This document shows, piece after piece, positions 8,602 through 33,127 of a DNA stretch of 33,127 bases. A program made the translations under genes and the position numbers. The notes beneath the pieces are model-generated. The model did no database searches. It was not told where the DNA came from and saw nothing but the letters and a program-made list of their open reading frames with translations. Every line of letters begins with the position of its first letter. Position 1 is the stretch's first letter. The stretch is from Dactylosporangium siamense (GTDB lineage Bacteria > Actinomycetota > Actinomycetes > Mycobacteriales > Micromonosporaceae), in NCBI RefSeq assembly GCF_016862795.1, contig NZ_BONQ01000153.1:1-33127 (forward strand), read 5' to 3'.

Positions 8602-9416
8602 TGGCGGCCGTCCGGGCCGGCGCGGCCAGCGACGTCGGCCGGGTCCGCCGGCGCAACGAGGACAGCGCGCTCGTCGCCGACGGGGTCTTCGCGGTCGCTG
8701 ACGGCATGGGCGGCCACGCCGCCGGTGACATCGCCAGCGAGCTCGCCGTCGAGGCGCTGCGGCGGCTCGCCATCCGGCCCGACCGGACCCCGCAGGACGT
8801 CCACGACGAGATCGCCCGCGCCAACGCCGACATCCTCGCCTCCGCGGTCGAGCATCCGGTCCGCACCGGCATGGGCACCACCCTCACCGGGATCAGCCTC
8901 GTGCTCGACGGCGGCGTGGAGCGGTGGGCCGTGTTCAACGTCGGCGACTCCCGGGTGTACCGGTTCGTCGGCGGCGTCCTCACGCAGCTCACCGTCGATC
9001 ACACCGCCCCGGAGAGCGTCACCCGGCGGCGCGGGGTGATCACCCGGGCGCTCGGCACCCGGCCCGCCCCGGACGCGGACCTGTGGGTCCTGCCGCCGGT
9101 GCCGGGGGAGCGGTTCGTGGTCTGCTCCGACGGGCTGTCCCTCGAGCTCACCGACGACGAGATCGCCGACGTCCTGCGGGCCGAGCCGGCCGCGCAGGCC
9201 GCCGCGGACCTCCTCGTGCGCCGGGCCGTGCTCGCCGGTGGCCGCGACAACGTCACCGCCGTCGTCGTCGACCACCTCGCCACCGCCGGGGCGGACACCG
9301 GCACCTACACCCGCGGCGCCCACGCCGCCCCCGAGGACGAGGACACCGACCCGGGCATCGTCGTCCACCCGGGCGTCGACACCGACCCGCTCGGCATCCC
9401 CGCAGGCCCCGGCTGA
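8601..9416 (+). CDS. PP2C-family protein serine/threonine phosphatase
   Basis: This metal-dependent phosphatase removes phosphate from Ser/Thr of proteins phosphorylated by the Hanks-type kinases common in actinomycetes. All core motifs are visible: SDVGRVRRRNEDS near the N-terminus, VADGMGGHAAGDIAS, GMGTTLTG, VFNVGDSRVYRF followed by LTVDHT, VITRALGT, FVVCSDGLS and GGRDNVTAVVV. The metal Asp residues are therefore present. At 271 aa it is a catalytic domain plus a 40-residue acidic tail, without the membrane helix of PstP, so it acts in the cytoplasm. It overlaps the upstream gene by one base and is followed, after a 19-bp tandem repeat that begins within its last codons, by an Hsp70-like gene. 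No kinase lies in the window. Confidence 0.92.
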   Translation: MAAVRAGAASDVGRVRRRNEDSALVADGVFAVADGMGGHAAGDIASELAVEALRRLAIRPDRTPQDVHDEIARANADILASAVEHPVRTGMGTTLTGISLVLDGGVERWAVFNVGDSRVYRFVGGVLTQLTVDHTAPESVTRRRGVITRALGTRPAPDADLWVLPPVPGERFVVCSDGLSLELTDDEIADVLRAEPAAQAAADLLVRRAVLAGGRDNVTAVVVDHLATAGADTGTYTRGAHAAPEDEDTDPGIVVHPGVDTDPLGIPAGPG

Positions 9417-9535
9417 CGGTGCAGGCCCCGGCTGACGCTGCAGGCCCCGGCTGACGGTGCAGGCCCCGGCGGGCGCCGCAGGCTCCGGCGGGCGCCGCAG
9501 GCTCCGGCGGGCGCCGCAGGCTCCGGGGCTGACGT
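9403..9535. repeat. 19-bp tandem array spanning the PP2C stop codon
   Basis: Six full units and a partial seventh: 9403-9421, 9422-9440, 9441-9459, 9460-9478, 9479-9497, 9498-9516, then a decaying copy. Units 1-3 read CAGGCCCCGGCTGACGGTG (unit 2 differs at one base). Units 4-6 end GGCGGGCGCCG instead. Unit 1 contains the TGA stop (9414-9416), and the later units fill most of the 147-bp gap to the next gene. Confidence 0.9.
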
Positions 9536-9563
9536 GTGCGCCGCCTGCTGTCAGGATCGTGCG

Positions 9564-11330
9564 ATGCACCTCGGCATCGACTTCGGTACGTCCAGCACGA
9601 CCGCGGTCCTGACCGGTGAGGACGGGGCGGTGACGCCCCTGCTGTTCGACGGCTCGCCGCTGCTGCCGTCGGCGGTCCACCTCGACGCCGCCAGCGGTGT
9701 CCTCGCGGTCGGCGGTGCCGCCGTGCGGGGCGGGACGGCCGACCCGGACCGCTACGAGCCCAACCCGAAGCTGCGCGCCGCCGACGTCGCCGTGACGCTC
9801 GGCGGCACCGGCGTGCCCGTCGAGCACCTGTTCGCCGCGGTCCTGTGGGCCGTGCACGCCGAGGCGCTGCGGGCCACCGGCGGGGTCCCGCCCCTTGAGG
9901 TGGCCCTGACCCATCCGGTGCTCTGGGACGCCCACCACCGCGGGACGCTGCTCACCGCCGCGTCGATGGCCGGGCTGCCGGCCGCCAGGCTCGTGCCGTC
10001 CCCGGTCGCGGTCGCCTGCACGCTGCTCGGACGGCTGCGGGTGCCGCTCGCCGAGGGGCAGTGCCTCGTCGTGTACGAGCTGGGCGCCGGCCCCTTCGAG
10101 GCCACCGTGGTGCGCTCCACCGCCGCCGGCCCGCAGGTCGTCGCGGCCGCCGGGCTCGCCGGCACCGGTGGCCTCGACGTCGACGCGGCGATCGCGGCCC
10201 ACCTCCTGGCCGTGGCACCCGCCGGCGCGCGGCTCGACCCGGGGCAGCGGCGGTGGCTGACGGAGCAGGCCCGGCTCGCGAAGGAGCTGCTGGGTGCCGG
10301 GACGCCCGCCGTCGTGCCCGTCGCCGGCCGGGGTGAGGTGACCCTGACCCCGGAGGACCTGGACCGCGTCGCGACCCCACTGGTGCGTCCCACCGCCGAG
10401 CTGACGCTGCGGGTGATGCGCGACGCCGGCGTCGACGCGCGGTCGGTCGCCGGGGTGTACCTCGCCGGCGGGGGCACCCGGATGCCGCTCGTCGCGACCC
10501 TGCTGCACCGCGTCGTCGGCATCCCGCCGGTCGCGGCCGACCAGCCGGAGCTCCTCGCCGCCGAGGGCAGCGTCGCGGTCCTGGCGGCGCCGCATCCGCC
10601 CGCCGCGCCGCCGCACCCGCACACCGTGCCGGCCCGGAGCGTGCCGGACGGGGACGGGGCCGGGCCGGACGGGGCCGGGCCGGACGGGGCCGGGCCGGAC
10701 GGGGGAGATGGCGGGCACCTGTGGCACTGGCTGCCGGAGCGCGCCGCGGTGATCTCGGGGCGGACGTGGCTGGACGCGCCGTTCCACCCGCTGCAGCTCG
10801 GCCTGCCGTCCGGCCACGGCTGGACGATCCGGGCCAGGTTCGCCGAGCCGGAGCACACCGTGTTCCTCAGCCGTGGTGGTGGCCCGCTGCTGTTCCGCAG
10901 TGTCGACGGGCTCGCCGCGTACCTGCTGCGCGACGGCGACCACGAGCTCGCCGAGCTTGACGGCTGGCCGGCGGCCCGGGACCTGTTCGTGTCGCTCGTG
11001 CGCGAGGCCGGCGACGAGGACGAGGTCGACCTGGACCTGGTGCAGTACAACCTCGGCTTCCCGCCGCAGCAGTGGATGCCGGACCTGCTGGCCGCCGCCC
11101 GGGACGTCGCCGTCGACCTGGCCGAGGCGTACGACCTGCACGACATCATCGCGCTCCTCGCCGACGGGAGCCTCCTCGACGGCGTCGACGACCTGCTGCG
11201 CGACGCCGAACGGGCCCTCGTCGGCCGGTCCGCCCGGCGGCGCCTGGACGCCGTCGACGCCGACGCGGTCCGCTGGGACTGGCACGCGATCGTCACCCGG
11301 CTCGACGGGATCGCCGCCTGGGCCGACTGA
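9564..11330 (+). CDS. Hsp70-like ATPase with a non-canonical C-terminal domain
   Basis: The first 345 residues are an Hsp70/actin-type nucleotide-binding domain: LGIDFGTSSTTAVL (phosphate-1 loop, residues 3-16), a phosphate-2-like stretch YELGAGPFEATVV in which the usual DLGGGT is degenerate, and the adenosine motif VYLAGGGTRMPLV. A GAGPD-repeat linker (about 362-383, 15-bp DNA repeat) leads to a 200-residue C-terminal part that is not the Hsp70 peptide-binding domain. This part contains EHTVFLSRGGGPLLFRSVDGLAAYLL and ends in an acidic helical region. I do not know its function. Start ATG 9564 has AGGA 7 nt upstream. The gene follows a phosphatase on the same strand, and ATPase activity may be weak given the altered loop. 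Length 588 aa. Confidence 0.85.
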   Translation: MHLGIDFGTSSTTAVLTGEDGAVTPLLFDGSPLLPSAVHLDAASGVLAVGGAAVRGGTADPDRYEPNPKLRAADVAVTLGGTGVPVEHLFAAVLWAVHAEALRATGGVPPLEVALTHPVLWDAHHRGTLLTAASMAGLPAARLVPSPVAVACTLLGRLRVPLAEGQCLVVYELGAGPFEATVVRSTAAGPQVVAAAGLAGTGGLDVDAAIAAHLLAVAPAGARLDPGQRRWLTEQARLAKELLGAGTPAVVPVAGRGEVTLTPEDLDRVATPLVRPTAELTLRVMRDAGVDARSVAGVYLAGGGTRMPLVATLLHRVVGIPPVAADQPELLAAEGSVAVLAAPHPPAAPPHPHTVPARSVPDGDGAGPDGAGPDGAGPDGGDGGHLWHWLPERAAVISGRTWLDAPFHPLQLGLPSGHGWTIRARFAEPEHTVFLSRGGGPLLFRSVDGLAAYLLRDGDHELAELDGWPAARDLFVSLVREAGDEDEVDLDLVQYNLGFPPQQWMPDLLAAARDVAVDLAEAYDLHDIIALLADGSLLDGVDDLLRDAERALVGRSARRRLDAVDADAVRWDWHAIVTRLDGIAAWAD

Positions 11331-11340
11331 GCACAGCGGG

Positions 11341-11374
11341 CGAGCAGCTCAGCGGGGCGAGCAGCTCAGCGGGG
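11341..11374. repeat. 17-bp tandem duplication at the GntR stop codon
   Basis: CGAGCAGCTCAGCGGGG is present twice (11341-11357, 11358-11374), with a degenerate fragment before it. The second unit contains TCA 11366-11368, the complement of the GntR gene's TGA. The array lies between convergent genes. Confidence 0.85.
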
Positions 11375-11803
11375 CCAGTGCAGGCCGAACCGGTCGGCGG
11401 GGTGGATCTCCTCCGCCTCGCCGGTGCGCACCACCAGGACCGGTACCCCCTCGGCGAGGCCGAACCGTTCCCGCTCCCGCGGGGTCGGCATCCGCGCCGA
11501 CACGACCCCGCCGGGCGGGACGGGGTGGACCTCGGCGGGGCCGCCGAGGATGCCGCCGGGCGGGCCGCCGGGGTCGCGGGCCGGCCGGGCGGTCACCGGG
11601 CCGACCCGGATCGACTTGTCGGGGGCGAGGAACAACAGGCCCTCCCGGCGCAGCACGGCGATGCCCTTGAGCGCCGTGTCGCGGCCGACGTCGTGCTCGT
11701 GGGCGAGCGTGGCGGCGCTGGGCACCACAGCTCCGGGTGGCAGGGTCCCGGCCATGATCTGGGCCCGGAGTGCGTCGGCGACACGCTCGTACCGTGGCGG
11801 CAT
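11366..11803 (-). CDS. GntR-family transcriptional regulator, short form
   Basis: A winged helix-turn-helix fills residues 1-70 (YERVADALRAQIMAGTLPPG, then DVGRDTALKGIAVLRREGLL), as in HutC-type GntR regulators. The effector part is short: after a Pro/Gly linker only about 45 residues remain (PTPRERERFGLAEGVPVLVVRTG), like the opening strands of a UTRA domain, so ligand sensing is minimal or absent. At 145 aa it is about 100 residues shorter than usual. The ATG at 11803 has no clear ribosome-binding site. A perfect palindrome lies 9-26 bp upstream, which suggests autorepression. Targets beyond itself are unknown; the convergent Hsp70-like gene is not an obvious one. Confidence 0.85.
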   Translation of the reverse strand: MPPRYERVADALRAQIMAGTLPPGAVVPSAATLAHEHDVGRDTALKGIAVLRREGLLFLAPDKSIRVGPVTARPARDPGGPPGGILGGPAEVHPVPPGGVVSARMPTPRERERFGLAEGVPVLVVRTGEAEEIHPADRFGLHWPR

Positions 11804-11811
11804 CCGGAAAC

Positions 11812-11829
11812 TGTAGCCACTTGGCTACA
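11812..11829. promoter_or_regulatory. Palindromic operator before the GntR gene
   Basis: TGTAGCCA-CT-TGGCTACA is a perfect inverted repeat with 8-bp arms and a 2-bp centre. It ends 9 bp before the GntR start codon and lies in the 40-bp gap to the TetR gene's stop, so it most likely covers the GntR promoter. Confidence 0.65.
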
Positions 11830-11843
11830 CGGGGCGGAAGGTC

Positions 11844-12452
11844 TCAGGCGGTCGTGGCGCCCAGGGCGCGGAACGCGAAGTCGGTGACCTGCTCCGCCGC
11901 CCGGGTCGCGCCGGCGTCGTCCTGGGCCGCGTCCGGCGCCATCCGCTCCTGGAACGCGGCCGACAGCGCCGCCGTGATCGTCCGCGCGTCGGCGTCCGGG
12001 TCGGCCCACGGCAGGGACCCGTCGGCGCGGCCCCGCTCGAGGATCGCCGCGACCGCCGCGTGGTGGGCGGCGGACATCCGCGCCCGCTCGGCGGTGTAGC
12101 CGGCCGTGCCCATCAGCTCGCCGCACGACATCACCAGGACCCGCCGGCGGCGCTGGCTGCCGGCGGTCAGCGACAGGAGCCCGAAGATCCAGGCCCGCAA
12201 CGCCTCCGGCGGGGTCGGCGCGGCGTCGGCGGCCGCCGTCAGCTCGGCGTGGACGCGGTCGCTGTCGCGGCGGAACATCGCCAGCAGCAGCGCGTCCTTG
12301 GAGTCGAAGTGGCGGTAGAACGCCCTGGTGGAAAGGCCTGCGGCGGCGAGCACGCCGGTGACGGACAGGCCGCCCCCGCCGGTGTCGACCAGGCAGCGGT
12401 GCGCGGCCTCGATGATCCGCGAACGCTCGCCGGTGTCTGCGGTCACGGACAT
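11844..12452 (-). CDS. TetR-family transcriptional regulator
   Basis: The N-terminus has the TetR helix-turn-helix (RSRIIEAAHRCLVDTGGGGLSVTGVLAAAGLSTRAFYRHFDSKDALLLAMF is the full domain, about residues 10-60; the recognition helix is STRAFYRHF). The rest (about 140 residues) is the helical ligand-binding and dimer domain and is not diagnostic. 202 aa, normal length, cytoplasmic. It is divergent from the FhuF-like gene with 50 bp between the starts, so it probably controls that gene, itself, or both. No clear palindrome was found in the short gap. The ligand is unknown. Confidence 0.88.
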   Translation of the reverse strand: MSVTADTGERSRIIEAAHRCLVDTGGGGLSVTGVLAAAGLSTRAFYRHFDSKDALLLAMFRRDSDRVHAELTAAADAAPTPPEALRAWIFGLLSLTAGSQRRRRVLVMSCGELMGTAGYTAERARMSAAHHAAVAAILERGRADGSLPWADPDADARTITAALSAAFQERMAPDAAQDDAGATRAAEQVTDFAFRALGATTA

Positions 12453-12490
12453 CAGCCCATGCTATCGGGGGCAGGTCCCGGAGCCGGGAA

Positions 12491-12503
12491 TAGGCTGCTG
12501 CGG
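12491..12503 (+). promoter_or_regulatory. Likely leaderless promoter of the FhuF-like gene
   Basis: TAGGCT (12491-12496) fits the actinomycete -10 form TANNNT and lies 6 nt before the GTG start. No Shine-Dalgarno sequence is present. Transcription starting at the GTG would give a leaderless mRNA. Confidence 0.5.
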
Positions 12504-13144
12504 TGAATCCGTACTTCGTGTGGGAGGACCTCACGGCCGGCGCAGAGGCCGGCACTGGCTGGCGGCCGTTCACCGACCTCCTCGATCCGGCCGTCGCCGC
12601 CGAACGGGTCGGGGTCGCGCGGGACACCCTCGTCACGATGTTCGGGCTCGACCCCGCCACGGTGCCGGTGCGGGTGGTCGCGTCGGTGACGTTCCTCGGG
12701 GTGGCGTCGCGGCTGCTCGCGCCGCCGCTGGTCGAGCCCAGGTTCCCGGCGCCGGGGCAGCTGTTCTGGAAACCGGTCGCCGGCGGGCCGTGGCCGATGG
12801 CGTGCACGGTGGCCGCCGCCGGCGGGGGCGCTGACGGGGGGACCGGCCAGTTCCGCGACCGGATCCTGCTCGGGCTGGTCGCCCCGCTGCTCGCCGTGTT
12901 CCAGGCGGAGTTCCGGCTCTCCCCGAAGGTGCTGTGGGGCAACGTCAGCTCGGCCCTGGCGGGCGCCGCCGGCCAGCTCGACGACCCGGCCGTCTGGGCG
13001 ACGGTCGCCGAGCTGCTCGGTGTCGCGCCCCTCGCCGGCACGGCGGACCTGCACGGCCGGGCGCTGCGCCGCCGCAACTGCTGCCTGTACTACCGGATCC
13101 CCGGCGGCGGCACCTGCGGCGACTGCGTCCTGCGCCGCCCCTGA
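12503..13144 (+). CDS. FhuF-like (2Fe-2S) ferric-siderophore reductase
   Basis: The C-terminus carries the FhuF cluster motif: Cys193-Cys194, ten residues, Cys205-x2-Cys208 (NCCLYYRIPGGGTCGDC), known to bind an unusual 2Fe-2S centre that reduces iron in imported siderophores. The upstream 190 residues have the expected layout, including the GNVSSALAGAA region before the cluster. 213 aa, cytoplasmic, no signal peptide. GTG 12503 is chosen because a -10-like TAGGCT precedes it by 6 nt and the sequence starts with the conserved region. The divergent TetR gene may regulate it. No siderophore transporter lies nearby. Confidence 0.8.
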   Translation: MNPYFVWEDLTAGAEAGTGWRPFTDLLDPAVAAERVGVARDTLVTMFGLDPATVPVRVVASVTFLGVASRLLAPPLVEPRFPAPGQLFWKPVAGGPWPMACTVAAAGGGADGGTGQFRDRILLGLVAPLLAVFQAEFRLSPKVLWGNVSSALAGAAGQLDDPAVWATVAELLGVAPLAGTADLHGRALRRRNCCLYYRIPGGGTCGDCVLRRP

Positions 13145-13240
13145 CCGCTCAGGACTGCGCCGCCGCTGACCGCTCAGGACTGCGCCGCCGCTGACCGCTC
13201 AGGACTGCGCCGCCACTGACCGCTCAGGTCTGCGCCGCCG
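13130..13240. repeat. 25-bp tandem array holding the stops of two convergent genes
   Basis: Four full 25-bp units (13130, 13155, 13180, 13205) and a partial fifth. Each unit is CTGCGCCGCC, two or three bases, then TGACCGCTCAGGA. Every unit has TGA on the plus strand and TCA (TGA on the minus strand) 4 nt later. Unit 1 supplies the stop of the FhuF-like gene and unit 4 supplies the stop of the anti-sigma gene. Confidence 0.9.
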
Positions 13241-13928
13241 TCCCCAGCAGGTGGCCGTCGTGGTCGGAGATGGTGACCTTGTCGACGTTCGGCAGCTGGA
13301 TCGAGCTGGCCCCGGTCACCCGGGCCGAGGCGGACGTGGTCCGGCCCCAGCACGCCGCCTGCTCCTCCTGGCCGCCGCGGCCGACCACCCGCAGCACGAA
13401 CGGCCCGTCACCCGGCAGGCCGCTGAGCTCCAGGGCCACCGACACACCCCACTGCCGCGGGGTCAGCGTCGCCCGGCCGGACAGCGCGCTGCCGGCGGCG
13501 GCGACGAACTGCACGACGGTGCCGACCGGCGCGCTCGAACCCGGCGCCGACGGCGCGGCCTGCGTGGTCCGGGCCGGCGTCCGCGGCGCGGACCGCGACC
13601 ACACGACCGAACCCGCGACGGCCAGGGCGACCACCGCGACGGCGACCCCCACCAGGATCCGGGCCCGCCGCCGGACCGGCGGCCGGACCCGCCGGGCCCG
13701 GCGGAGCAGCGCGTCGACGCCGTCGCGGGTCGGCGACTCGAGGACCGCCGCGGGCACGTCACCGGGCAACCGCTGCAGCAGCTCCGGCACCGGCGCGAGC
13801 CGGTCGACCTCGGCGCGGCAGTCCGGGCAGCCGCTCAGGTGCGCGTCGACCCTGACCTGGTCGGTCTCGTCCAGCCCGCCCAGCACGTACCCGCCGAGCA
13901 GTGGGCGCACCGAGTCGTGTTCGCTCAC
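13224..13928 (-). CDS. Zinc-finger anti-sigma factor with RskA-like outer domain
   Basis: The protein holds the partner ECF sigma factor at the membrane and releases it on a signal, usually by proteolysis. The N-terminus has the anti-sigma zinc finger HxxxCxxC (His30, Cys34, Cys37 in DAHLSGCPDC). A helical and basic stretch is followed by one membrane helix (about 90-110) and an outer domain of about 120 residues like that of anti-sigma-K (TPRQWGVSVALELSGLPGDG, HLLGTAA end). 234 aa, normal. The GTG start at 13928 overlaps the sigma stop (GTGA), so the two are coupled. No site-1 protease gene is nearby. The signal is unknown; the RskA type often responds to oxidative or redox stress. Confidence 0.88.
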   Translation of the reverse strand: MSEHDSVRPLLGGYVLGGLDETDQVRVDAHLSGCPDCRAEVDRLAPVPELLQRLPGDVPAAVLESPTRDGVDALLRRARRVRPPVRRRARILVGVAVAVVALAVAGSVVWSRSAPRTPARTTQAAPSAPGSSAPVGTVVQFVAAAGSALSGRATLTPRQWGVSVALELSGLPGDGPFVLRVVGRGGQEEQAACWGRTTSASARVTGASSIQLPNVDKVTISDHDGHLLGTAAQT

Positions 13929-14434
13929 CGCAGCACCCCCATCTCCTCGAACACCGCGCGCAGCGCCCGGACCGCGTAATAGGCGCGGGACTTGACCGTG
14001 CCCTCCGGCACGGACAGCCGGCGGGCGGTGTCGGCGACGGTACGCCCGTCGTAGTACACGGACTCCACAACCTGCCGGTGCTCGACCGACAGCCGGTCCA
14101 GGGCGGCGCGGACCAGCCAGCCCTCCACGAGCTCGTCGACGTTGTCGGCGTCGGCGACCGCGGCGATCGCGTCCGGGTCGTCGACCAGCCGCGGCCGCCG
14201 CTGCTCCGCCCGCCACGCGTTGCTGACCACGTTGCGCGCGATCGTCAGCAGATACGCGCGGGTGGTGTCACGGCTGACGTCGATCCGCCCGATGTGCCTC
14301 CAGGCCCGCAGGAGCGTCTCCTGGACGAGGTCCTCGGCACGGTGGCGGTCGCGTTCATACCGCGAGACGAAGCCGAGCAGCACACCGTAGTGCTCGGTGT
14401 ACAGCGCGGTCATCAGCTCCTCGTCCCTGGTCAA
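13925..14434 (-). CDS. ECF (sigma-70 family) RNA polymerase sigma factor
   Basis: Region 2 is near the N-terminus ([55 protein letters not shown]) and region 4 is at the C-terminus ([44 protein letters not shown]). 169 aa, typical of the SigK/SigL/SigM-type ECF groups. The start is TTG 14434: GAGGAG ends 6 nt upstream, while the next ATG (codon 8) is too close to its only site. It overlaps the anti-sigma gene by 4 nt. Autoregulation is usual for the group, but I could not name a clear -35/-10 pair. The divergent chemoreceptor gene starts about 150 bp away and could share this control. Confidence 0.92.
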
Positions 14435-14580
14435 CCGGGTCTCCTCACATGCGGATCCTGCCGTGGTCTACCCCACCAGACGGTTGCGGGTTCAACCACC
14501 CGGGAGGCCGGGACTTTTCCACAACTCCGGCACCGCCCGTCCGATGTGTCACCCGGGCGGTGTACCGACAGGGGGAGCGC

Positions 14581-16188
14581 ATGCACGTGCTACGTCGGAT
14601 GCGGCTGGCGGTGCGGCTCGCCGTGTGTTTCGCCGCGGTCGGGGTGCTGTTCAGCACCGGCATCGTCGTCGGCGCGCGGGCGCTCGGTGACCAGTCGACA
14701 TCGGTCGAGCACCTGCGCCGGCTGATGGCGCTCATGCACCAGGTCGACGAGCAGAAGTACTACGACGCGGACATCTCCGGCTGGCAGCTCGCGTACGCCT
14801 GGGACACGTACCGGCTCAAGGACCCGAAGGCCGCCGTCGCGCCCACCTCGGACAACCGGGCCGGGTTCCTCGCCGACAAGGCCGTCCTGCAGACCCTGCT
14901 CCGCGACACGCGCACCGCCGACATGACCGCGGCGGAACGGGCGATCTTCGAGGAGCTCAGGACGCTGTGGGAGTCGTACTGGACCTACGACGACCAGATC
15001 GCCGGCCTCTTCGGGCAGGGCCGCATCGACGACGCGAACGCGGTCATCCTCGGCCCGTCGTTCGAGATCTACGTGAAGATCGTCGAGCAGACCAACGCGC
15101 TCATCGCCCAGGTCACCGCCCGGGCCTCCGCCGCCGCCGTGGACGCGCACACGGCCGCGAACCGGGCCCGGGCCACGATGACGGTCCTCGGCGTCGCCGC
15201 CGCGCTCGTCGCGGCCCTGCTGATCTGGGCGCTGACCCGCAGCCTCACCGTGCCGCTGCGCCGCCTCGACCACGCGCTGCGCCGGCTGTCCGGCAAGGAC
15301 CTCACCGCGACCGTGGCCGACCCGGCCCGCGACGAGGTGGGCGCGATGGCGGCCTCCTACGACGAGGCGGTCACCGGCCTGCGGCGGACCCTCACGGACC
15401 TGTCGGCCGGCGCCCGCGAGCTCACCGGCGCCTCCACCGCGGCGGCGGCCGCCGGCCACGCGATCGCCGACGGTGCGGCGCAGGCCGACACGCAGGCCGC
15501 GAGCGTCACCGACACCGCCGACGTGGTCTCCCAGAACGTGCAGACCGTCGCGGCGGGCGCCGAGCAGATGGGCGCCTCGATCTCGGAGATCGCCCGCAAC
15601 GCCGCCGACGCCGCCGGGGTCGCGATGACGGCGGTGACGGCCGCCGAGACCACCCACGCGACGATCGGCCGGCTCGGCACCGCCTCGGCCGAGATCGAGG
15701 ACGTGGTCAAGCTGATCACGTCGATCGCCGGCCAGACGAACCTTCTGGCGCTCAACGCCACGATCGAGGCGGCCCGCGCCGGCGACGCGGGCCGCGGCTT
15801 CGCCGTCGTCGCCAACGAGGTCAAGGACCTCGCCCAGGAGACGTCCCGGGCGACGGAGAGCATCGCCCAGCGCGTCGCCGCCATCCAGCAGGGCACCGGC
15901 GACGCGGTCACCGCGATCTCCGAGATCGGCGCGATCATCGCCCAGATCAGCGACTACCAGACGACGATCGCCTCCGCGGTCGAGGAGCAGTCGGCCACGA
16001 CCGCGGAGATGACCCGCAACGTGGCCGAGGCCGCCGACGGCACGGCCCGCATCGCCACGTCGATCGCCGCAGTCGCCTCGGCGACGGCGGGCAGCCGCGC
16101 CGGCGCGGACGAGGCGAACCGCAGCGCGGAGGAACTGCGGGCCCTGGCCGACCGGCTGCACCACGCCGTCTCTGAGTTCACTGTGTGA
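14581..16188 (+). CDS. Methyl-accepting chemotaxis-type receptor
   Basis: This is a 535-aa transmembrane receptor. It has TM1 (about 11-33), a helical 4HB-type outer domain of 165 residues ([21 protein letters not shown] onward), TM2 (about 200-219), HAMP (220-270) and a long cytoplasmic coiled coil. The conserved hairpin tip [17 protein letters not shown] and [11 protein letters not shown] is at about 384-415, where CheA and CheW bind in other bacteria. GGGGGAG precedes ATG 14581. No CheA, CheW, CheR or flagellar gene is in the window, so partners must be elsewhere or the receptor serves a non-chemotaxis role. Tyr/Trp-rich patches in the outer domain ([12 protein letters not shown]) may form the ligand site; the ligand is unknown. 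Confidence 0.92.
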
Positions 16189-16234
16189 GGACGTTCACGG
16201 TCTGCGGACGTTCACCGTCTGATCAGGTCAGGTC
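16176..16234. repeat. 17-bp array at the receptor stop plus CAGGT repeats
   Basis: Three degenerate 17-bp units start with GTTCAC at 16176, 16193 and 16210. Unit 1 contains the TGA stop 16186-16188. The array runs into CAGGT-CAGGT (16224-16233), which carries the TCA (16228-16230) of the convergent YcnI-like gene's stop. Confidence 0.8.
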
Positions 16235-16941
16235 CCGGACTGCGGACGCGCGCGGCGGAACGCGAGGACCGCGACGACCAGGCCGGCGAGACCCAGGACG
16301 AGCCCCGCGACGCCGAGCCCGACCGCGGTGCCGTCACCGCCGTCGTCCTTCGCCGCGACCGCTGGCGCGGCACCGGTGGGCGCCGCGGTGGCGGCCGCGT
16401 CGGCCTTCTTGGTGAGCTTCAGGACCGGGGCCGGGTGCTCGGCCTCCGCGCCGGCGGCGGGCTCGTCGATCCAGCGGACGACCTCACCGCCGGAGTACGT
16501 CTGCAGCGCCTTGAACACGATCTTGTCGACGGCCGGCAGCGGGCCGAGCGACACGTCGAACTCCTGGAACTGGTGCGGCTTGATCTCCGCACCCGCCGAC
16601 GCCGTCCAGGTGATCTTCGAGACGGCGTCGGTGATCTCGCCGTCGTCGGTCTTGATCGGCGTCGCGAGCTTGCTGTTCTCGGCGACCGCGGTCCAGCCCT
16701 GGATCGGTTTGAGCGACACGGACGCGATCGGGGTGTCGGTCGGCAGCGCGATCTCGAGCTTGGTGGTGGAGGCGTCGTCGCGCTCGTTCGGCACCCGGAA
16801 CGTCACCTTCGTGTAGCCGCCCTGCGTGGCGGTGCCCGGGTTGACGGTGACGTGGGCGGAGGCGACGGCGGGGAAGGCGAGTGCCGCGGCGGCGGCCGCG
16901 GTCACGGCGACACCCGCGCGGACCACATGGGTCAGGCGCAT
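16228..16941 (-). CDS. YcnI-like copper-binding exported protein (DUF1775)
   Basis: A signal peptide (1-29) ends VASA, so the mature chain starts HVTVNPGTA, the hallmark of YcnI proteins. There the N-terminal His and nearby residues bind copper at the outer membrane face. The domain runs to about residue 165 (YTKVTFRVPNERDDA, IQGWTAVAE, WIDEP, all typical). It is followed by an Ala/Pro linker and one C-terminal membrane helix (about 206-228) with a basic tail, which anchors it. 237 aa from ATG 16941 (AGAGGA 11 nt upstream; an earlier GTG would add 12 residues that spoil the signal peptide). Usual neighbours are copper-trafficking genes (CopC/CopD, Sco). None lies next to it, though the exported protein at 32445 has a similar mature N-terminal His. 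Confidence 0.85.
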   Translation of the reverse strand: MRLTHVVRAGVAVTAAAAAALAFPAVASAHVTVNPGTATQGGYTKVTFRVPNERDDASTTKLEIALPTDTPIASVSLKPIQGWTAVAENSKLATPIKTDDGEITDAVSKITWTASAGAEIKPHQFQEFDVSLGPLPAVDKIVFKALQTYSGGEVVRWIDEPAAGAEAEHPAPVLKLTKKADAAATAAPTGAAPAVAAKDDGGDGTAVGLGVAGLVLGLAGLVVAVLAFRRARPQSGT

Positions 16942-17036
16942 GATGCGGGCTGTCCTCTCGGAAGACGGGAACTGCACGGTCTGCGGGTAGTCGCCGCGGG
17001 CCGCCGGAAAGTTCCCGCCGGTTCCGGAAAACCGGT

Positions 17037-17051
17037 CAGGTCAGGTCAGGT
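17037..17051. repeat. CAGGT triplicate over the VKOR stop codon
   Basis: Three copies of the 5-mer CAGGT (17037-17051) overlap the last two codons and the TGA of the VKOR-family gene (TCA 17041-17043). The same 5-mer is repeated at the stop of the neighbouring YcnI-like gene (16224-16233). Confidence 0.75.
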
Positions 17052-17517
17052 CGGCCGGGTCCGCGTAGGCGGTGCCGAGCGCCGTCACCGCGAACAGGCC
17101 GACGGCCAGGACGTGCACCGCCGTGCACCACAGGCAGATCGCGTCCAGGATGAACAGCTCCGCGAAGACGAGCCACGCGACGAACAGCACCCCGACCGCC
17201 GCGAACGCGAGCCGGGCGAGCCGGACGTCCCGGCGCGGGGTGCGCCACAGCGGTGCCAGGGCCACCATGGCCGCGAAGTACAGCAGGCCCAGGACCGCGA
17301 CCGGCACGCCGAACAGGGTGGACTGCTCGCTGGTGGTGACCTTCAGGCAGTTCAACGCGCCGGTGTCCGGGCACGCGAGGGTGGTCGAGGACGTGTAGTG
17401 CTCGATCGTCAGGTACACCGACACGGCCAGGCCGACGACGGACAGCACCAGTGACACGGGCGGCACCCACCGCTGGACCAGGGAGTCGGCGATCGGGTTG
17501 ACGGCGGTCTCGGTCAT
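17041..17517 (-). CDS. Vitamin K epoxide reductase family protein (disulfide regenerator)
   Basis: Bacterial VKOR proteins re-oxidise a DsbA-type partner and pass electrons to menaquinone. This 158-aa membrane protein has four or five helices, the active-site pair Cys128-x2-Cys131 (AICLWCTAVH) at the end of a late helix, and the loop pair Cys49/Cys57 (ACPDTGALNC), which shuttles electrons. All four catalytic Cys are present. It has no fused thioredoxin domain; that function is probably supplied by the adjacent upstream gene, whose stop is 2 nt before this ATG. The stop lies in a CAGGT repeat. Confidence 0.9.
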   Translation of the reverse strand: MTETAVNPIADSLVQRWVPPVSLVLSVVGLAVSVYLTIEHYTSSTTLACPDTGALNCLKVTTSEQSTLFGVPVAVLGLLYFAAMVALAPLWRTPRRDVRLARLAFAAVGVLFVAWLVFAELFILDAICLWCTAVHVLAVGLFAVTALGTAYADPADLT

Positions 17518-22052: not shown

Positions 22053-23593
22053 CGGTCCTCCTCGGCGGAAACGGGCGGCGCGGGCGGTTTGGGCGGCGCG
22101 GGCGGTTTGGGCGGTGCGGGCGGTTTGGGTGCTTCGGGGCGGGTGCGCCACCACTCGCGGAACGTCTGCCCCGGCGGGCGGGGCAGGTCGCGGCTCGCCG
22201 TCCACGCCGACAGCGGCGGCGGCAACGCCGTGATCCGGTCGGCGCGGCGGCCGAGGAGCCGGCCGAGCCGCATCAGCCGCTCCCCGCCGCGGAACCTCGC
22301 GGGCTTCGCCATCACCCACGCCATCGCCGCCATCGCGACGGCCTCCGCGGACGGCACCGGCCGCGCGGCCCGCTCCTCGACGTGCCGGGCCCGCAGGTGC
22401 ACCAGCATCGCCGGGATGTCGATGCGCACGGGACACGCGTCGAAGCACGCGCCGCAGAGGCTGGACGCGTACGGCAGCGAGGCGTTGTCCTCGACCCCGG
22501 TGAGCTGCGGGCTGAGCACGGCGCCGATCGGGCCCGGGTACACGGAGCCGTAGGCGTGCCCGCCGGTGCGCTCGTACACGGGGCAGACGTTGAGGCAGGC
22601 ACTGCACCGGATGCAGTGCAGCGCGGACCGGCCCCGCTCGTCGGACAGCACGGCGGTGCGGCCGTTGTCGAGCAGGACGAGATGGAAGTCCTGCGGGCCG
22701 TCGCCGGGGGTGACCCCGGTCCACAGCGACGTGTACGGGTTCATCCGCTCGCCCGTCGAGGAGCGCGGCAGCAGCTGCAGGAACACCTCGAGGTCGGTCC
22801 AGGCCGGCACGACCTTCTCGATACCCATGACAGTGATCAGGGTCTGCGGCAGGGTCAGGCACATCCGGCCGTTGCCCTCGGACTCGACGACCGCGAGGGT
22901 GCCGGACTCGGCGACCGCGAAGTTCGCCCCGGACACCGCGACCCGCGCGGTCAGGAACTTCTCGCGCAGATACGCCCGGGCGGCCATGGCCAGGTCGCGC
23001 GGCTCGTCCGACAGGTCGCCCACGCCGGGCATGGTGCGGCGGAAGATGTCGCGGATCTCGGTGCGGTTGCGGTGGATGGCCGGGACCAGGATGTGCGACG
23101 GCTTGTCGTCGCCGAGCTGCACGATGAGCTCCGCGAGGTCGGTCTCCCAGGCGGTGACCCCGCCCTCGGCCAGGGCCTCGTTGAGCCCGATCTCCTGGGT
23201 GGCCATCGACTTGACCTTGACGACCTCGTCGGCGCCGGCGGCCCGGACCAGGCCGAGCACGATCGCGTTGGCCTCGGTGGCGTCGCGGGCCCAGTGCACG
23301 GTGCCACCCCGGGCGGTGACCTGCTCCTCCAGCTGGGTCAGCAGCTCGGGCAGGCGGGCCATGGTCGCGGCCTTGACCGCCTCGCCCGCGAGGCGCAGCT
23401 CCTCCCAGTCGGGGACCTCGCCGACGACGGCGGCACGCTTCCCGCGGATCGTGCGGGTGGCGTGGCCGAGGTTGCGCCGCAGCTGCCCGTTGCCGAGCGC
23501 GGTGCGGGCGGCGTCGGGGAACGGCTCGTCACCCCGGAGGGCGCCGACACCGCGCGGTGCGTACACCGGCATCCCGAGAAATGTCGAGGTCAT
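22049..23593 (-). CDS. lutB: LutB, iron-sulfur subunit with LUD domain
   Basis: 514 aa. The N-terminal two-thirds is a LUD domain (VKVKSMATQEIGLNEAL, HRNRTEIRDIF, AVAESGTLAVVESEGNGRM). Two 4Fe-4S ferredoxin motifs follow (CIRCSACLNVCPVY near 325-340 and CGACFDACPVRID near 375-390), then a C-terminal extension. It is the electron-carrying core of LutABC. The last 40 residues hold three PPAPPKP-type repeats (18-bp DNA repeat, 22070-22125) just before the end, which standard LutB lacks. ATG 23593 overlaps the lutA stop (ATGA), as does its own stop with lutC, so all three are translationally coupled. Confidence 0.93.
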   Translation of the reverse strand: MTSTFLGMPVYAPRGVGALRGDEPFPDAARTALGNGQLRRNLGHATRTIRGKRAAVVGEVPDWEELRLAGEAVKAATMARLPELLTQLEEQVTARGGTVHWARDATEANAIVLGLVRAAGADEVVKVKSMATQEIGLNEALAEGGVTAWETDLAELIVQLGDDKPSHILVPAIHRNRTEIRDIFRRTMPGVGDLSDEPRDLAMAARAYLREKFLTARVAVSGANFAVAESGTLAVVESEGNGRMCLTLPQTLITVMGIEKVVPAWTDLEVFLQLLPRSSTGERMNPYTSLWTGVTPGDGPQDFHLVLLDNGRTAVLSDERGRSALHCIRCSACLNVCPVYERTGGHAYGSVYPGPIGAVLSPQLTGVEDNASLPYASSLCGACFDACPVRIDIPAMLVHLRARHVEERAARPVPSAEAVAMAAMAWVMAKPARFRGGERLMRLGRLLGRRADRITALPPPLSAWTASRDLPRPPGQTFREWWRTRPEAPKPPAPPKPPAPPKPPAPPVSAEEDR

Positions 23594-24327: not shown

Positions 24328-24330
24328 TGA

Positions 24331-25353: not shown

Positions 25354-25373
25354 CGGTCTCCCGGGATTGCCTG

Positions 25374-25389: not shown

Positions 25390-25434
25390 GGAGCACTGTG
25401 CCACATGTGTCGAACCGTCACTGTAGCCACAGCA

Positions 25435-25446: not shown

Positions 25447-25506
25447 CAATAGTGGCACACGCCGCCCGGCACCGGCCGGAGGGCAGCGCGGCACCGCCCG
25501 GACGGC

Positions 25507-25522
25507 TAGGGTCGGACAACTG
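25507..25522 (+). promoter_or_regulatory. Likely promoter of the lipoprotein gene
   Basis: TAGGGT (25507-25512) lies 9 nt before the GTG. There is no Shine-Dalgarno sequence, so the mRNA may be leaderless or nearly so. Confidence 0.4.
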
Positions 25523-26361: not shown

Positions 26362-26367
26362 CCGCTC

Positions 26368-26465
26368 GGTCCGCGCCGCTTGGTCCGCGCCGCTCGGTCC
26401 GCGCCGCTCGGTCCGCGCCGCTCGGTCCGCGCCGCTCGGTCCGCGCCGCTCGGTCCGCGCCGCTC
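26368..26465. repeat. 14-bp tandem array between convergent genes
   Basis: Seven units of GGTCCGCGCCGCTC (starts 26368, 26382, 26396, 26410, 26424, 26438, 26452; one base differs in the first). They fill the whole gap between the lipoprotein's TGA (26359-26361) and the HD-domain gene. The next copy has TCAGTCC in place of TCGGTCC, and that TCA (26464-26466) is the HD gene's stop. Confidence 0.92.
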
Positions 26466-27024
26466 AGTCCACCGGAAAGGCGGCCTGGAACGCCAGGCGG
26501 GCGTCGGCGTCTTCGGCGACGCGGGTCAGCTCGTCGTCGAGGACCAGGAACGCCTCCCACGGCTCGCGCCCGCCGCCGAGCAGCGCCGCGACCCGCTGCT
26601 CCAGGCCGTCCACCCGCTTGCCCTTCCACACCTTGTCGGCGAGCGTCACCAGGAGCTCCTCCGCGGTCGCGTCCGGCCGCTCCCACTGGCCGTGCGTCGC
26701 CGCGAACCTGGCCAGGTCCCCGTGGTCACGCAGCAGGTCCGCGCCGGTGGCCTCGTGCGCGCTGCCGGGCTCCGACAGCTCCCGCCGGTGCACGGCCTTG
26801 CCGATGTCGTGCGTCGCCGCGCCGAACAGCACCGCCGCCCGGTCCACCACCAGCCCCGGCGCCGCCTCCGCCAGCCAGTCCAGCAGCTGCGCGGCGACGT
26901 CGTGCACGAGCCGCAGGTGCGCGACCAGCCTCGGCGGCGCGTCCACCCGGCGCAGGACCGCCACCACCTCCGGCGGCAGCGGCCGCGGTCCGGGCTCGGC
27001 CAGCGCCCGCTCGAACGCGCTCAC
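26464..27024 (-). CDS. HD-domain protein
   Basis: 186 aa. A metal-binding HD domain is visible: His41 in RLVHDVAAQLL and the central His72-Asp73 in LFGAATHDIGKAVH, then GADLLRDHGDLARFAATHG and LLVTLADKVWKGKR, whose Asp completes the site. HD proteins are phosphohydrolases for nucleotides or similar substrates; the substrate here is not visible. The GTG start at 27024 overlaps the stop of the phosphopantetheinyl transferase gene (GTGA), so it is translated with that gene. Cytoplasmic. Its stop codon is the last, diverged unit of the 14-bp tandem array. Confidence 0.85.
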   Translation of the reverse strand: MSAFERALAEPGPRPLPPEVVAVLRRVDAPPRLVAHLRLVHDVAAQLLDWLAEAAPGLVVDRAAVLFGAATHDIGKAVHRRELSEPGSAHEATGADLLRDHGDLARFAATHGQWERPDATAEELLVTLADKVWKGKRVDGLEQRVAALLGGGREPWEAFLVLDDELTRVAEDADARLAFQAAFPVD

Positions 27025-28704: not shown

Positions 28705-28777
28705 GGATCGATCCTGACGCATCGACGGAGGCGAGGCGACCCCGTCCGGCGGAAATGCACGCGACGAGATGCGTCGA

Positions 28778-30208
28778 CTACGTTGCGTCAGGGATGCTGG
28801 CGCCCTGTGCGCGCAGGACCCGCTGGACGTGCGCCGCCGGGATCTCGCGCGGCGGCTTGCCGACCCGGGCCGACAGGGCCGCGCACACGCCCGCGGCCTG
28901 GCCGGTCGCCATCGAGATGGGCATGATGCGATACGAGCTGTGCGCCACGTGGTCGCCGGAGATGCAGCGCCCCGCGACGAGCAGCCGGTCCACGTCACGG
29001 GGCAGCAGCGTCCGCAGCGGGATGTCGTAGGACGTGCCCTGCGGCAGCCGGCGCAGGATCGTGCCCGGGCCGTTCGGGTTGTGGATGTCGACCGGATACG
29101 CGCCGCGCGCCACCACGTCCGGAAACTTCCGCGCGTCGAGGACGTCCTGGCCGGTGAGCTGGTAGTCGCCGAGCACCCGGCGGGTCTCCCGCACGCCGAC
29201 CTGCACGCCGCTCTGGATCACGTACGAGGACTCGAACCCGGGCACGCGGGTCCGCAGGAACCGGGCGATGCTGTCCAGCTGGCGGTGCATCGCCAGCTCG
29301 GCCCGGGTCAGGTCCCACACGCTGACGCCGAGGCCGCCGAAGCGGGTCGAGTTGACCGACACCTCGCCCTCGTGCGGGGTGGCGAAGAACAGCACGTCCT
29401 CCCGCGGCAGGTCCAGCTCGCCCGCGTCGCGCGCCTCCCGGATCAGGTCCCACAGGCCGTGCACGCCCTTCCACTGGTCGGGGTGCTCGCGGACGTACTC
29501 GGCGAAGCCCTCCCGCCGAAGGTCGCCGATCCGGAACATCAGCGTCATCGGCTGGGTCAGCCCGTCCTCGGGGCGGCCCACCTCGTAGGGGGCGCCCGCC
29601 GACGCGGCCAGGTCACCGTCGCCGGTGCAGTCCACGACGACGTCGGCGTCGATCACGACGGGGCCGGACTTCGTCTCGAACACCACGCGGGAGGCGTCGG
29701 GCAGCGCGATGAGGTCGGAGGCGAACGCGTGCAGCAGCAGCTTCACGCCGGCGCCGCCGAGCATGTCGTACGTGACGAGCTTGAACGTCTCCGGGTCGAA
29801 CGGGACCGTGTATCCCGTCTCCTTCGCCGGCGTGATCGCGCCACCGGCCCGGACCAGGCGGTCCAGCAGCATCCACAGCACCCCGGCGACGACCGGCTCG
29901 CCCTCGCCGTGGTCGGTGGGCAGCAGCCGGCTGTCGTCGCCGCCGACCGCCTGCTTGATCTCGTTGTGGAAGCTCATCAGCGGCATGACGAGGGCCGCGG
30001 TGGCGTTGCCGCCGAGGAACCCGTACCGCTCGACCAGCACGACGTCGGCGCCGGCGGCCGCCGCGCCCATCGCCGCCCCGAACCCGGCCGGGCCGCCACC
30101 GACCACCAGGACCTCGGTGTGCCCGCCGTGCTCCGCCGTCCTCGGCGGCAGGTGCACCCGTTGCGTGCTGCCCGGCCGGCCCAGCGCGGTGCTGTCCGGT
30201 GGGTTCAT
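28778..30208 (-). CDS. FAD-dependent oxidoreductase (FAD_oxidored type)
   Basis: 476 aa. The dinucleotide motif is EVLVVGGGPAGFGAAMGAAAAGADVVLVER (GGGPAG at 37-42, with the Glu of LVER closing it). Then come RYGFLGGNATAALVMP, a marker of this subfamily, VVDCTGDGDLAASAGA, and the C-terminal FAD site RLLVAGRCISGDHVAHSS, MPISMATGQAAGVCAAL. The substrate is unknown. Cytoplasmic. It is second in a minus-strand operon after a polysaccharide pyruvyl transferase, with a duplicated 20-bp junction between them (see 30205-30244). A 73-bp gap separates it from the next gene. Confidence 0.88.
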   Translation of the reverse strand: MNPPDSTALGRPGSTQRVHLPPRTAEHGGHTEVLVVGGGPAGFGAAMGAAAAGADVVLVERYGFLGGNATAALVMPLMSFHNEIKQAVGGDDSRLLPTDHGEGEPVVAGVLWMLLDRLVRAGGAITPAKETGYTVPFDPETFKLVTYDMLGGAGVKLLLHAFASDLIALPDASRVVFETKSGPVVIDADVVVDCTGDGDLAASAGAPYEVGRPEDGLTQPMTLMFRIGDLRREGFAEYVREHPDQWKGVHGLWDLIREARDAGELDLPREDVLFFATPHEGEVSVNSTRFGGLGVSVWDLTRAELAMHRQLDSIARFLRTRVPGFESSYVIQSGVQVGVRETRRVLGDYQLTGQDVLDARKFPDVVARGAYPVDIHNPNGPGTILRRLPQGTSYDIPLRTLLPRDVDRLLVAGRCISGDHVAHSSYRIMPISMATGQAAGVCAALSARVGKPPREIPAAHVQRVLRAQGASIPDAT

Positions 30209-30244
30209 GCCGCGACCTTCGTCGTCATGCCGCGACCTTCGTCC
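30205..30244. repeat. 20-bp duplication of a stop/start junction
   Basis: TCATGCCGCGACCTTCGTCG occurs at 30205-30224 and again, with one change, at 30225-30244. On the minus strand each copy ends GCATGA. The upstream copy provides the TGA of the pyruvyl transferase (30227-30225), the downstream copy the ATG of the FAD oxidoreductase (30208-30206). Confidence 0.9.
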
Positions 30245-31337: not shown

Positions 31338-31420
31338 CGTCGCCCGCTACCCAGCAGGCGTCGGGTCATACGTTGCCCGTATGGTGGGTTTCGACCATTC
31401 GGCAACCGTGGGCGGGGCAC

Positions 31421-32437: not shown

Positions 32438-32444
32438 GCCGCTG

Positions 32445-33053
32445 GTGAGGCGGTTCGTCGTTGTGGCGGCGGTACTGCTGGCAGTGCTGGGCCTGGCTTC
32501 GCCCGCCGCCGCCCATGGTGGCGCGTCGGTCACCATCCACTCCGACGGCCGTGGCTCTGTGTGGATCACCGCCCAGTGGCAGGACGGCCACCCCATCAAC
32601 GAGCCGACCCCGGTGACCCTGACCGCGACGCCCGCGGCGGGCGGGTCGGCGGTGACCGCCGGAGCGAAGCTCACGCAGACCGGTGACGAGCGCGGCACGC
32701 AGACGTGGAGCGGCGTGCTGCCGCCCGGGTCGTGGCGGGTCGCGATCGACCTCGGCGCCCCCGTCGAGGGGCACTGCCAGGCGCTGGTCCCGGCGGTCTC
32801 CGGCGCAGAGACCGGCACACAGTCCGGCACACAGACCGGCACGCAGACCGGCACGGGGGCCGGCACCCCGCAGCCGGTCGAGGTGGCGTGCCTGATCCCG
32901 GCGACCGCCGCGACGGCCCCGGCCGGCGACGCGCCGGCTGGGTCATCGGGGGCGGGCAGCCTCGCCCCGCTCTGGGTGACCCTGGGTGTGCTGCTGATCG
33001 CCGGCCTGGTGGTGGCCGAGGTGATCCGCCGCCGCAAGCACCGGCAGAGGTAG
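32445..33053 (+). CDS. Exported membrane-anchored protein with mature N-terminal His
   Basis: 202 aa. A signal peptide (1-23) ends PAAA, giving a mature start HGGASVTIHSDGRGS, a His-first layout like CopC, YcnI and YtkA-type proteins. A single beta-sandwich-like domain (VWITAQWQDGHPINEPTPVTLTATPA, to about 115) contains two Cys (GHCQALV, VACLIP) separated by a GTQTGT repeat. A linker and one C-terminal membrane helix (about 170-193) with a basic tail anchor it. Copper or other metal binding is a suggestion only. GTG 32445, 8 nt after the potassium channel stop, likely co-transcribed. The stop TAG lies in the first unit of a 17-bp tandem array that runs to the window end. Confidence 0.7.
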   Translation: MRRFVVVAAVLLAVLGLASPAAAHGGASVTIHSDGRGSVWITAQWQDGHPINEPTPVTLTATPAAGGSAVTAGAKLTQTGDERGTQTWSGVLPPGSWRVAIDLGAPVEGHCQALVPAVSGAETGTQSGTQTGTQTGTGAGTPQPVEVACLIPATAATAPAGDAPAGSSGAGSLAPLWVTLGVLLIAGLVVAEVIRRRKHRQR

Positions 33054-33127
33054 CGTGCCGGCAGACGTAGCGCGCCGGCAGACGTAGCGCGCCGGCAGAC
33101 GTAGCGCGCCGGCAGACGTAGCGCGCC
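33040..33127. repeat. 17-bp tandem array spanning a stop codon
   Basis: A diverged first unit (33040-33056) holds the last codons and TAG stop (33051-33053). Exact units GCCGGCAGACGTAGCGC follow at 33057, 33074, 33091 and 33108, then the array runs off the window. Each unit keeps TAG. Confidence 0.92.

What the first reader, a model, noticed from the sequence alone, without database searches (positions are those of the whole stretch)
9403..33127. Short tandem arrays sit on stop codons of many unrelated genes
Seen directly: arrays at 9403 (19 bp), 11341 (17), 13130 (25), 16176 (17), 17037 (5), 26368 (14), 30205 (20) and 33040 (17). In almost every case one unit contains a gene's stop codon and the copies extend outside the gene. 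Unit sequence and length differ from locus to locus, so this is not one mobile repeat but a repeated process acting at stop-codon regions of unrelated genes. Inference: slippage or end-processing at gene ends, perhaps linked to transcription termination or R-loops, with a possible role as insulators or back-up stops. I know of no named system that does this.
Basis: partly seen in the sequence, partly recalled or inferred. Interest (0 to 1): 0.8.

Follow-up and report, generated by a model that had tools for sequence, protein, structure and literature searches.

The report
Tandem arrays spared at gene ends
Short head-to-tail DNA repeats really do sit on the stop codons of many genes in this soil bacterium, but the likeliest reason is that such repeats arise widely and survive mainly where they break neither a reading frame nor a gene's front end, so a special stop-codon machinery is not needed for most of them.

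Summary
The window is one contig of a draft Dactylosporangium genome (12.7 Mb). In 2.0 Mb of that genome, 57 of 125 tandem arrays that reach outside genes cover a stop codon and 2 cover only a start codon. Dinucleotide shuffles of 1128 junctions give 1-3 arrays against 91 real ones.

The stop itself is probably not the target. Arrays inside genes have units divisible by three (208 of 221; in the window 9 of 9, against 0 of 8 reaching outside genes). Convergent gaps wide enough to offer both placements show no stop excess (13 on, 14 beside; P 0.49-0.80). Same-direction gaps keep one (13 against 7; P 0.002-0.015). Stop triplets are kept in later copies no better than other triplets (75 of 96 against 1208 of 1567), so back-up stops are unsupported. 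Of 23 comparisons with sister species one shows an array on the stop, with an unrelated unit.

Best reading: frequent short-homology tandem duplication, filtered by selection. Borg elements of archaea show much the same in print. Open: why actinomycetes make so many, and the rest at same-direction gene ends.

The parts
9400..9526 (+). 19-bp array (6.7 copies, also scored as 38 bp) beginning 17 bp before the end of the PP2C-like gene; the stop 9414-9416 lies in copy 1
   Evidence: absent at the orthologous gene end in the 5 relatives compared
11334..11375 (.). 17-bp array (2.5 copies) in a 35-bp gap between convergent genes; contains the stop of the minus-strand GntR gene (11366-11368)
13130..13240 (.). 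25-bp array (4.4 copies) that covers both stops of a convergent pair (FhuF-like 13142-13144, zf-HC2 13224-13226); a 10-bp sequence at both ends of the array lies in the conserved C-termini of both genes and is the likely seed of the duplication
   Evidence: no array at this junction in the 6 Dactylosporangium relatives compared
16176..16222 (+). 17-bp array (2.8 copies) with the stop of the chemotaxis-receptor-like gene (16186-16188) in copy 1; copy 2 has no stop there, the partial copy 3 has TGA again
17034..17052 (-). 5-bp array (3.8 copies) over the stop of the VKOR-family gene (17041-17043); low score, may be chance. D. vinaceum has an unrelated 18-bp array at the same gene end
26362..26470 (.). 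14-bp array (7.8 copies) filling a convergent gap; only the last copy carries the stop of the minus gene (26464-26466), the others have TCG or TTG there
30205..30243 (-). 20-bp perfect two-copy array over the stop of the polysaccharide pyruvyl transferase gene (30225-30227) and the start of the following FAD-oxidoreductase gene
33041..33127 (+). 17-bp array (at least 5.1 copies) with the stop 33051-33053 in copy 1; cut by the contig end, so its true length is unknown
10652..10704 (+). 15-bp array wholly inside the HSP70-like gene: an in-frame counterpart of the arrays at gene ends
22073..22129 (-). 18-bp array wholly inside the 3' part of the LUD-domain gene: in-frame counterpart
32799..32854 (+). 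12/24-bp array wholly inside the gene that ends at 33053: in-frame counterpart

Best explanation
Short tandem duplications (unit 11-27 bp in 82 of 125 arrays) arise often and in all parts of this actinomycete genome, by slippage or misalignment between short direct repeats, and then change copy number by further slippage. Selection removes those that break something. Inside genes nearly only units divisible by three survive. In front of genes few survive. A duplication whose first copy contains the stop codon leaves the upstream protein unchanged, and the sequence between convergent genes is largely free, so any unit length can survive there. The concentration on stop codons is thus mainly a pattern of survival in a gene-dense genome whose convergent gaps have a median of 33 bp, not of targeting. 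Shown: the positional pattern, the reading-frame filter, the absence of stop preference in convergent gaps, absence of the arrays at most of the orthologous gene ends examined, no special conservation of stops in later copies. Inferred: slippage as the mutational step, selection as the cause, and neutrality of the arrays.
For: Units of arrays inside genes are divisible by three in 208 of 221 in the own genome, 38 of 39 in Nonomuraea, and 7 of 7, 26 of 26 and 24 of 25 in three further actinomycete sets; in the window 9 of 9, against 0 of 8 for arrays reaching outside genes. Array density per 10 kb of possible start positions: convergent junctions 31.4 on a stop, 15.3 at 0-20 bp, 17.3 at 20-40 bp; tandem interiors 1.1-3.5; divergent gaps 1.3 (1.6 Mb). 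Uniform-placement model for convergent gaps up to 150 bp: 19 observed on a stop, 17.5 expected, P 0.34; up to 100 bp 18 against 15.3, P 0.16. The stop lies within the first unit in 59 of 63 cases, at positions compatible with uniform (KS P 0.32). Stop triplet kept in later copies 75 of 96, other triplets 1208 of 1567. Short-homology seeds: 11 of 19 exact two-copy arrays have at least 4 further matching bases, 3.5% expected for blunt duplication; at 13130-13240 the two ends of the array code for conserved C-termini of two genes. At four orthologous gene ends in 5 or 6 relatives (23 comparisons) one carries an array on the stop, D. vinaceum with an unrelated unit.
Against: A plain uniform model over all gaps is rejected: convergent 24 observed on a stop against 12.1 expected (P 7e-5; gaps up to 300 bp 23 against 15.9, P 0.009), and tandem 21 against 4.6-6.9 (P 2e-7 to 4e-11). 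Long gaps may hold missed genes and promoters, but I did not show this. Neutrality is inferred from the absence of signals, not measured. Extra matching bases could also be worn third copies rather than seeds.
Confidence: 0.75

Rival explanations
1. A mutational process tied to gene 3' ends (transcription termination, R-loops, head-on transcription or ribosome release) generates tandem duplications preferentially around stop codons.
For: In tandem gaps array density falls from 15.8 per 10 kb on the stop to 3.5 in the next 20 bp; the local test leaves an excess, 13 against 7, P 0.002-0.015. Array density is highest in convergent gaps. Arrays inside genes are about 1.7 times as dense in the last 60 bp as 480-960 bp from the stop (164 against 98 per Mb).
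Against: No excess on stops in convergent gaps of 60, 100 or 200 bp and more: P 0.25-0.80 over five sets, 0.21-0.45 in the own genome, although such gaps have a stop on both sides. The rise inside genes is modest and the ends of proteins are also more tolerant. Short direct repeats are no richer at stops than in gene middles or convergent gaps.
Confidence: 0.14
2. The arrays are kept by selection as back-up stop codons, insulators or transcription terminators.
For: Many units carry a stop for one or both strands. Length of the rnc-fpg array in M. tuberculosis correlates with expression of the gene behind it (PMC2734929, passages), so some arrays can have effects.
Against: Stop triplets are conserved among copies no better than the rest of the unit (75 of 96 against 1208 of 1567). 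Only 15 of 57 unit lengths are divisible by three, so most extra stops are out of frame. Arrays fold no better than non-array convergent junctions (-0.377 against -0.417 kcal/mol per base), though slightly better than their own shuffles (-0.347). At 26362-26470 only the last copy holds the stop.
Confidence: 0.05
3. Frame-breaking duplications arise inside the last codons and create a new, premature stop within the array, so the stop sits there by construction.
For: Units not divisible by three read all frames within three copies, and most units here are of that kind.
Against: The stop lies in the first unit in 59 of 63 cases, where the frame is not yet shifted. C-termini of the window genes at 9416, 13144 and 13224 end within a few residues of those in D. 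aurantiacum.
Confidence: 0.03
4. Assembly artefact of a draft short-read genome.
For: The window ends inside an array, and 7 of 38 contig ends held have an array within 60 bp, so arrays and assembly breaks go together.
Against: The same pattern, at 39 stop arrays per 1000 genes, is in a Nonomuraea record of 11.85 Mb described as complete, and the D. vinaceum example comes from a record titled complete genome. Breaks at arrays suggest that long arrays are under-counted.
Confidence: 0.02

Closest known systems
Tandem repeats of Borg elements (PMC9879509; abstract and passages seen)
   Same: Many unrelated units, recent and independent origin; units inside genes divisible by three; about half of the regions intergenic or with the first unit within or partly within gene ends; flanking partial repeats suspected as seeds.
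   Different: Borgs are A-rich archaeal extrachromosomal elements and their units are reported as perfectly repeated; here units are 72.5% G+C and matches run from 73% to 100%, on bacterial contigs, and controls for stop placement were run.
Mycobacterial VNTR loci, e.g. VNTR3239/ETR-F between rnc and fpg (PMC2734929; passages seen)
   Same: Tandem arrays in an actinobacterium between the stop of one gene and the start of the next; present in the M. tuberculosis complex, while the gap is only a few bases in the other mycobacteria of that study.
   Different: Copy-number variation between strains is documented there and could not be tested here.
MIRU elements of mycobacteria (named in PMC2734929; their stop/start overlap is recalled, not read)
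   Same: Located at gene junctions; the 30205 array duplicates a stop/start junction in a similar way.
   Different: MIRUs are 40-100 bp units scattered over 41 places and named as one kind; here the units differ from place to place.
Satellites in prokaryotes (PMC6749651; passages seen)
   Same: Tandem repeats listed in actinobacteria such as Streptomyces coelicolor and Amycolatopsis mediterranei; most families have units that are multiples of 3.
   Different: The family list there holds repeats over 30 nt, and the term 'stop codon' does not occur in the main text.

Membership tests
Minisatellite/VNTR-type tandem arrays | Head-to-tail copies of a short unit beyond chance | tested here: met
   91 arrays against 1-3 in shuffles
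Minisatellite/VNTR-type tandem arrays | Copy number variable between strains | not testable with these tools
   No conspecific genome among the 7 of the genus; the best other match to 12503-13928 is 79% identical
Borg-type tandem repeats | Units inside genes divisible by three, those outside not | tested here: met
   208 of 221 inside genes; 15 of 57 stop arrays and 28 of 66 interior arrays
Borg-type tandem repeats | Flanking partial repeats | tested here: met
   11 of 19 exact two-copy arrays have at least 4 extra matching bases, 3.5% expected
Borg-type tandem repeats | A-enriched units, perfect copies, Borg replicon | tested here: not met
   Units 72.5% G+C, matches from 73% to 100%, bacterial contigs
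MIRU (one dispersed repeat family) | The same 40-100 bp unit at many loci | tested here: not met
   Units of 7 to 91 bp, different at each place listed
Stop-codon-targeted process | Preference for the stop over adjacent equally free positions | tested here: inconclusive
   Convergent gaps: none (P 0.25-0.80, five sets); tandem gaps: 13 against 7, P 0.002-0.015, shrinking to 5 against 2, P 0.03-0.08

The most novel reading that the evidence does not exclude
In addition to survival, duplications are made more often across the ends of coding sequences than just beyond them, at least where genes follow one another in the same direction, which would mean that translation or transcription termination is mutagenic in actinomycetes.
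Probability: 0.15. Interest if true: 0.7.

Novelty: new member of a known kind. Interest (0 to 1): 0.33.

Why it matters
It turns an apparent gene-end system into a natural record of how often short tandem duplications occur and which of them selection lets live: reading-frame filter inside genes, near exclusion in front of genes, free passage at stops. It also shows a large difference between lineages worth explaining: 171 and 217 arrays per Mb in Dactylosporangium and Nonomuraea against 13 in a Methylorubrum megaplasmid of 66% G+C and 7 in E. coli (that is 4 arrays in 300 kb of Methylorubrum, and 1 in 150 kb of E. coli). If it holds, actinomycete gene ends are a supply of typing markers and an assay for slippage in bacteria in which MutS was not found (30 of 31 genomes).

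Tried and rejected
Rejected: one mobile repeat. Units differ from place to place. A search of the own genome with 9300-9700 found its own place and 25 further matches, 24 in the HSP70-like coding part and one at query 63-96, just before the array; none covers the array. Only 40 of 598 candidates were scored, and this was done for one array of eight. Rejected: known RNA elements (no Rfam match in the window). Rejected: intrinsic terminators at arrays (2 terminator-like sites in 9300-17200, neither at one of the five arrays there; the other three arrays were not scanned). Rejected: frameshift-made stops, back-up stops, hairpins (see rivals).

Considered and left open: lack of MutS as the cause of abundance. 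MutS_V is found in 1 of 31, NucS in 31 of 31 and Ku in 29 of 31 genomes (own and relatives), and NucS is reported unable to correct indels (PMC8228993, passages including the abstract). But MutS is recalled to act on loops of only a few bases, so it does not obviously explain 17-bp units. G+C content and end joining are confounded with it.

Led nowhere: period length as a signature. Unit 17 is commonest (11 of 125 arrays), but medians do not differ between own genome and Nonomuraea (20 and 22.5, P 0.94). Sister species gave few stop arrays (4 of 373 genes in four genomes; 0 of 59 genes in four further loci), too few to prove that the own genome differs.

Literature searches for a prior report; one search failed; one for NucS. 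Only the open-licence library was searched.
Full report
What was checked. The window is the whole of contig C153 of a draft genome of 12.7 Mb in 296 contigs. Its best relatives by one protein are Dactylosporangium species (sp. AC04546, D. fulvum, D. vinaceum, D. aurantiacum, and further down D. sucinum). Of the 20 proteins sent to Pfam, 17 matched a family; of the 13 genes flanking the eight arrays 11 matched. The gene caller is my own (a fifth-order, three-periodic Markov model trained on the genome itself), as no standard one was at hand, so starts in particular are approximate.

Is it genome-wide? In 2.025 Mb of the genome (1788 called genes) Tandem Repeats Finder at score 50 gives 125 arrays that reach outside genes. 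57 of these cover a stop codon (5 of the 57 also cover a start) and 2 cover only a start. Arrays wholly in genes number 221. In three dinucleotide shuffles of 1128 junctions 3, 1 and 2 arrays were found, against 91 in the real ones.

Why stops? Three things have to be separated: how dense genes are, where a duplication can survive, and where duplications are made. First, convergent gaps have a median of 33 bp, so anything lying in them is near a stop. Second, of 221 arrays inside genes 208 have units divisible by three; in the window it is 9 of 9 inside genes and 0 of 8 reaching outside. Units of 14, 17, 20 or 25 bp are therefore presumably made but removed inside genes, and the stop region is the first place where they are harmless, because the first copy keeps the stop. 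The stop lies within the first unit in 59 of 63 cases, spread evenly over it (KS P 0.32). Third, arrays are rare in front of genes: 2 start-only arrays of 125 and 12 in divergent gaps.

Does anything remain for the stop itself? A uniform model over all gaps says yes: convergent 24 observed on a stop, 12.1 expected, P 7e-5; gaps up to 300 bp 23 against 15.9, P 0.009; tandem 21 observed, 4.6 to 6.9 expected (on the 1.6 Mb then held). But with convergent gaps limited to 150 bp it is 19 against 17.5 (P 0.34) and to 100 bp 18 against 15.3 (P 0.16). In convergent gaps there is no excess: five sets (own genome, Nonomuraea, and Actinoplanes-group, Actinomadura and Streptosporangiaceae loci) 13 on and 14 beside, P 0.49 or 0.80; own genome 9 and 6, P 0.21 or 0.43; wider limits give P 0.23-0.56. 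In tandem gaps an excess stays: five sets 13 on and 7 beside, P 0.0018 or 0.015; own genome 9 and 2, P 0.0008 or 0.004; with wider protection of the next gene's front 5 against 2 and 4 against 1, P 0.03-0.08. The numbers are small, the sets differ in size, and tandem gaps hold promoters and terminators that I could not map. I read this as survival with a rest that is not explained; that rest is the novel case.

Do the arrays do anything at stops? If extra stops were useful, the stop triplet would be kept in later copies better than the rest of the unit. It is not: 75 of 96 against 1208 of 1567 in 37 gapless arrays (arrays with indels were left out). Only 15 of 57 stop arrays have units divisible by three. 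Arrays are not better hairpins than other convergent junctions. At 26362 only the last copy has the stop, and at 16176 copy 2 lacks it.

How do they start? Of 19 exact two-copy arrays with unit 13 or longer, 11 have at least 4 further matching bases, against 3.5% for blunt duplications placed at random (30 of the 125 arrays passed the filters for unit length, gaps and an exact copy). At 13130-13240 the same 10 bases stand at both ends of the array. At the left end they code for the C-terminus of the FhuF-like protein, at the right end for that of the zf-HC2 protein, and both C-termini are similar in D. aurantiacum, which has no array (read by eye). This is what a duplication seeded by a chance direct repeat should look like. 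The step itself (slippage, or end joining by short homology) is inferred.

How old are they? At four orthologous gene ends compared with 5 or 6 relatives each, 23 comparisons, one shows an array on the compared stop: D. vinaceum has two copies of an 18-bp unit at the VKOR gene end where this genome has a 5-bp array of low score. At junction D five relatives show low-scoring repeats nearby: four are 21-bp repeats inside the YcnI-like gene, and in D. aurantiacum a 10-bp two-copy one begins just inside that gene's end without covering its stop. So arrays look recent and made anew. The other four window arrays were not compared.

How wide is it? Stop arrays per 1000 genes: own genome 31.9, Nonomuraea 39.0 (9 of 231), Actinoplanes-group loci 47.6 (6 of 126), Actinomadura loci 13.5 (3 of 222), Streptosporangiaceae loci 10.4 (3 of 288), Methylorubrum megaplasmid 4.4 (1 of 229). 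E. coli 0 of 127. Smaller sets: Micromonospora 0 of 42, Catellatospora/Asanoa 1 of 39, Streptomycetaceae 0 of 56, Pseudonocardiales 0 of 42, other Dactylosporangium loci 0 of 59. Four sister Dactylosporangium samples gave 2, 0, 0 and 2 in 87, 101, 87 and 98 genes; three of the same family and one of the same order gave 1, 1, 1 and 2 in 78, 74, 66 and 98 genes. So the pattern is patchy outside the two large samples, with wide error. All arrays together: 171 and 217 per Mb in the two large actinomycete samples, 13 and 7 in Methylorubrum and E. coli. The cause of this difference is not known; see Tried and rejected for MutS, NucS and Ku.

What is known. The closest description is of Borg elements (PMC9879509, abstract and passages): recent independent arrays, units inside genes divisible by three, about half of the regions intergenic or with the first unit in gene ends, partial repeats suspected as seeds. 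Mycobacterial VNTR3239 lies between the rnc stop and the fpg start and is confined to the M. tuberculosis complex among the species compared there (PMC2734929, passages). I found no paper describing the stop-codon pattern in actinomycetes in the listings; only an open-licence library was searched.

Verdict. Interest is moderate to low: a known kind of repeat, a clear selective reason, a real open question about why some actinomycetes carry so many, and a residual signal at same-direction gene ends.

Noticed in passing
window 33041-33127; own-genome contig ends: The window ends inside an array, and 7 of 38 contig ends held have a tandem array within 60 bp, so assembly breaks often fall at arrays and long arrays are probably under-counted.
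   Followed up: partly
window 1-2000: G+C is 57% against 69-78% in the other 2-kb steps, with a 493-aa minus-strand ORF at 508-1989 that matches no NCBIfam model; possibly acquired DNA.
   Followed up: no
L094 (D. fulvum) about 14890-14970: Beside the YcnI gene end D. fulvum has what looks by eye like a long inverted repeat instead of an array, perhaps a terminator or a small mobile element.
   Followed up: no
window 30205-30243: A perfect 20-bp duplication copies a stop/start overlap between two co-directional genes, so that the called genes no longer overlap.
   Followed up: partly
window 8601-11330: A PP2C-like gene is followed by a HSP70-like gene; the pairing, kept in D. aurantiacum, was not pursued.
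   Followed up: no
G007 C1:5993272-5995289: The one genome among 31 with MutS_V matches has two of them side by side.
   Followed up: no
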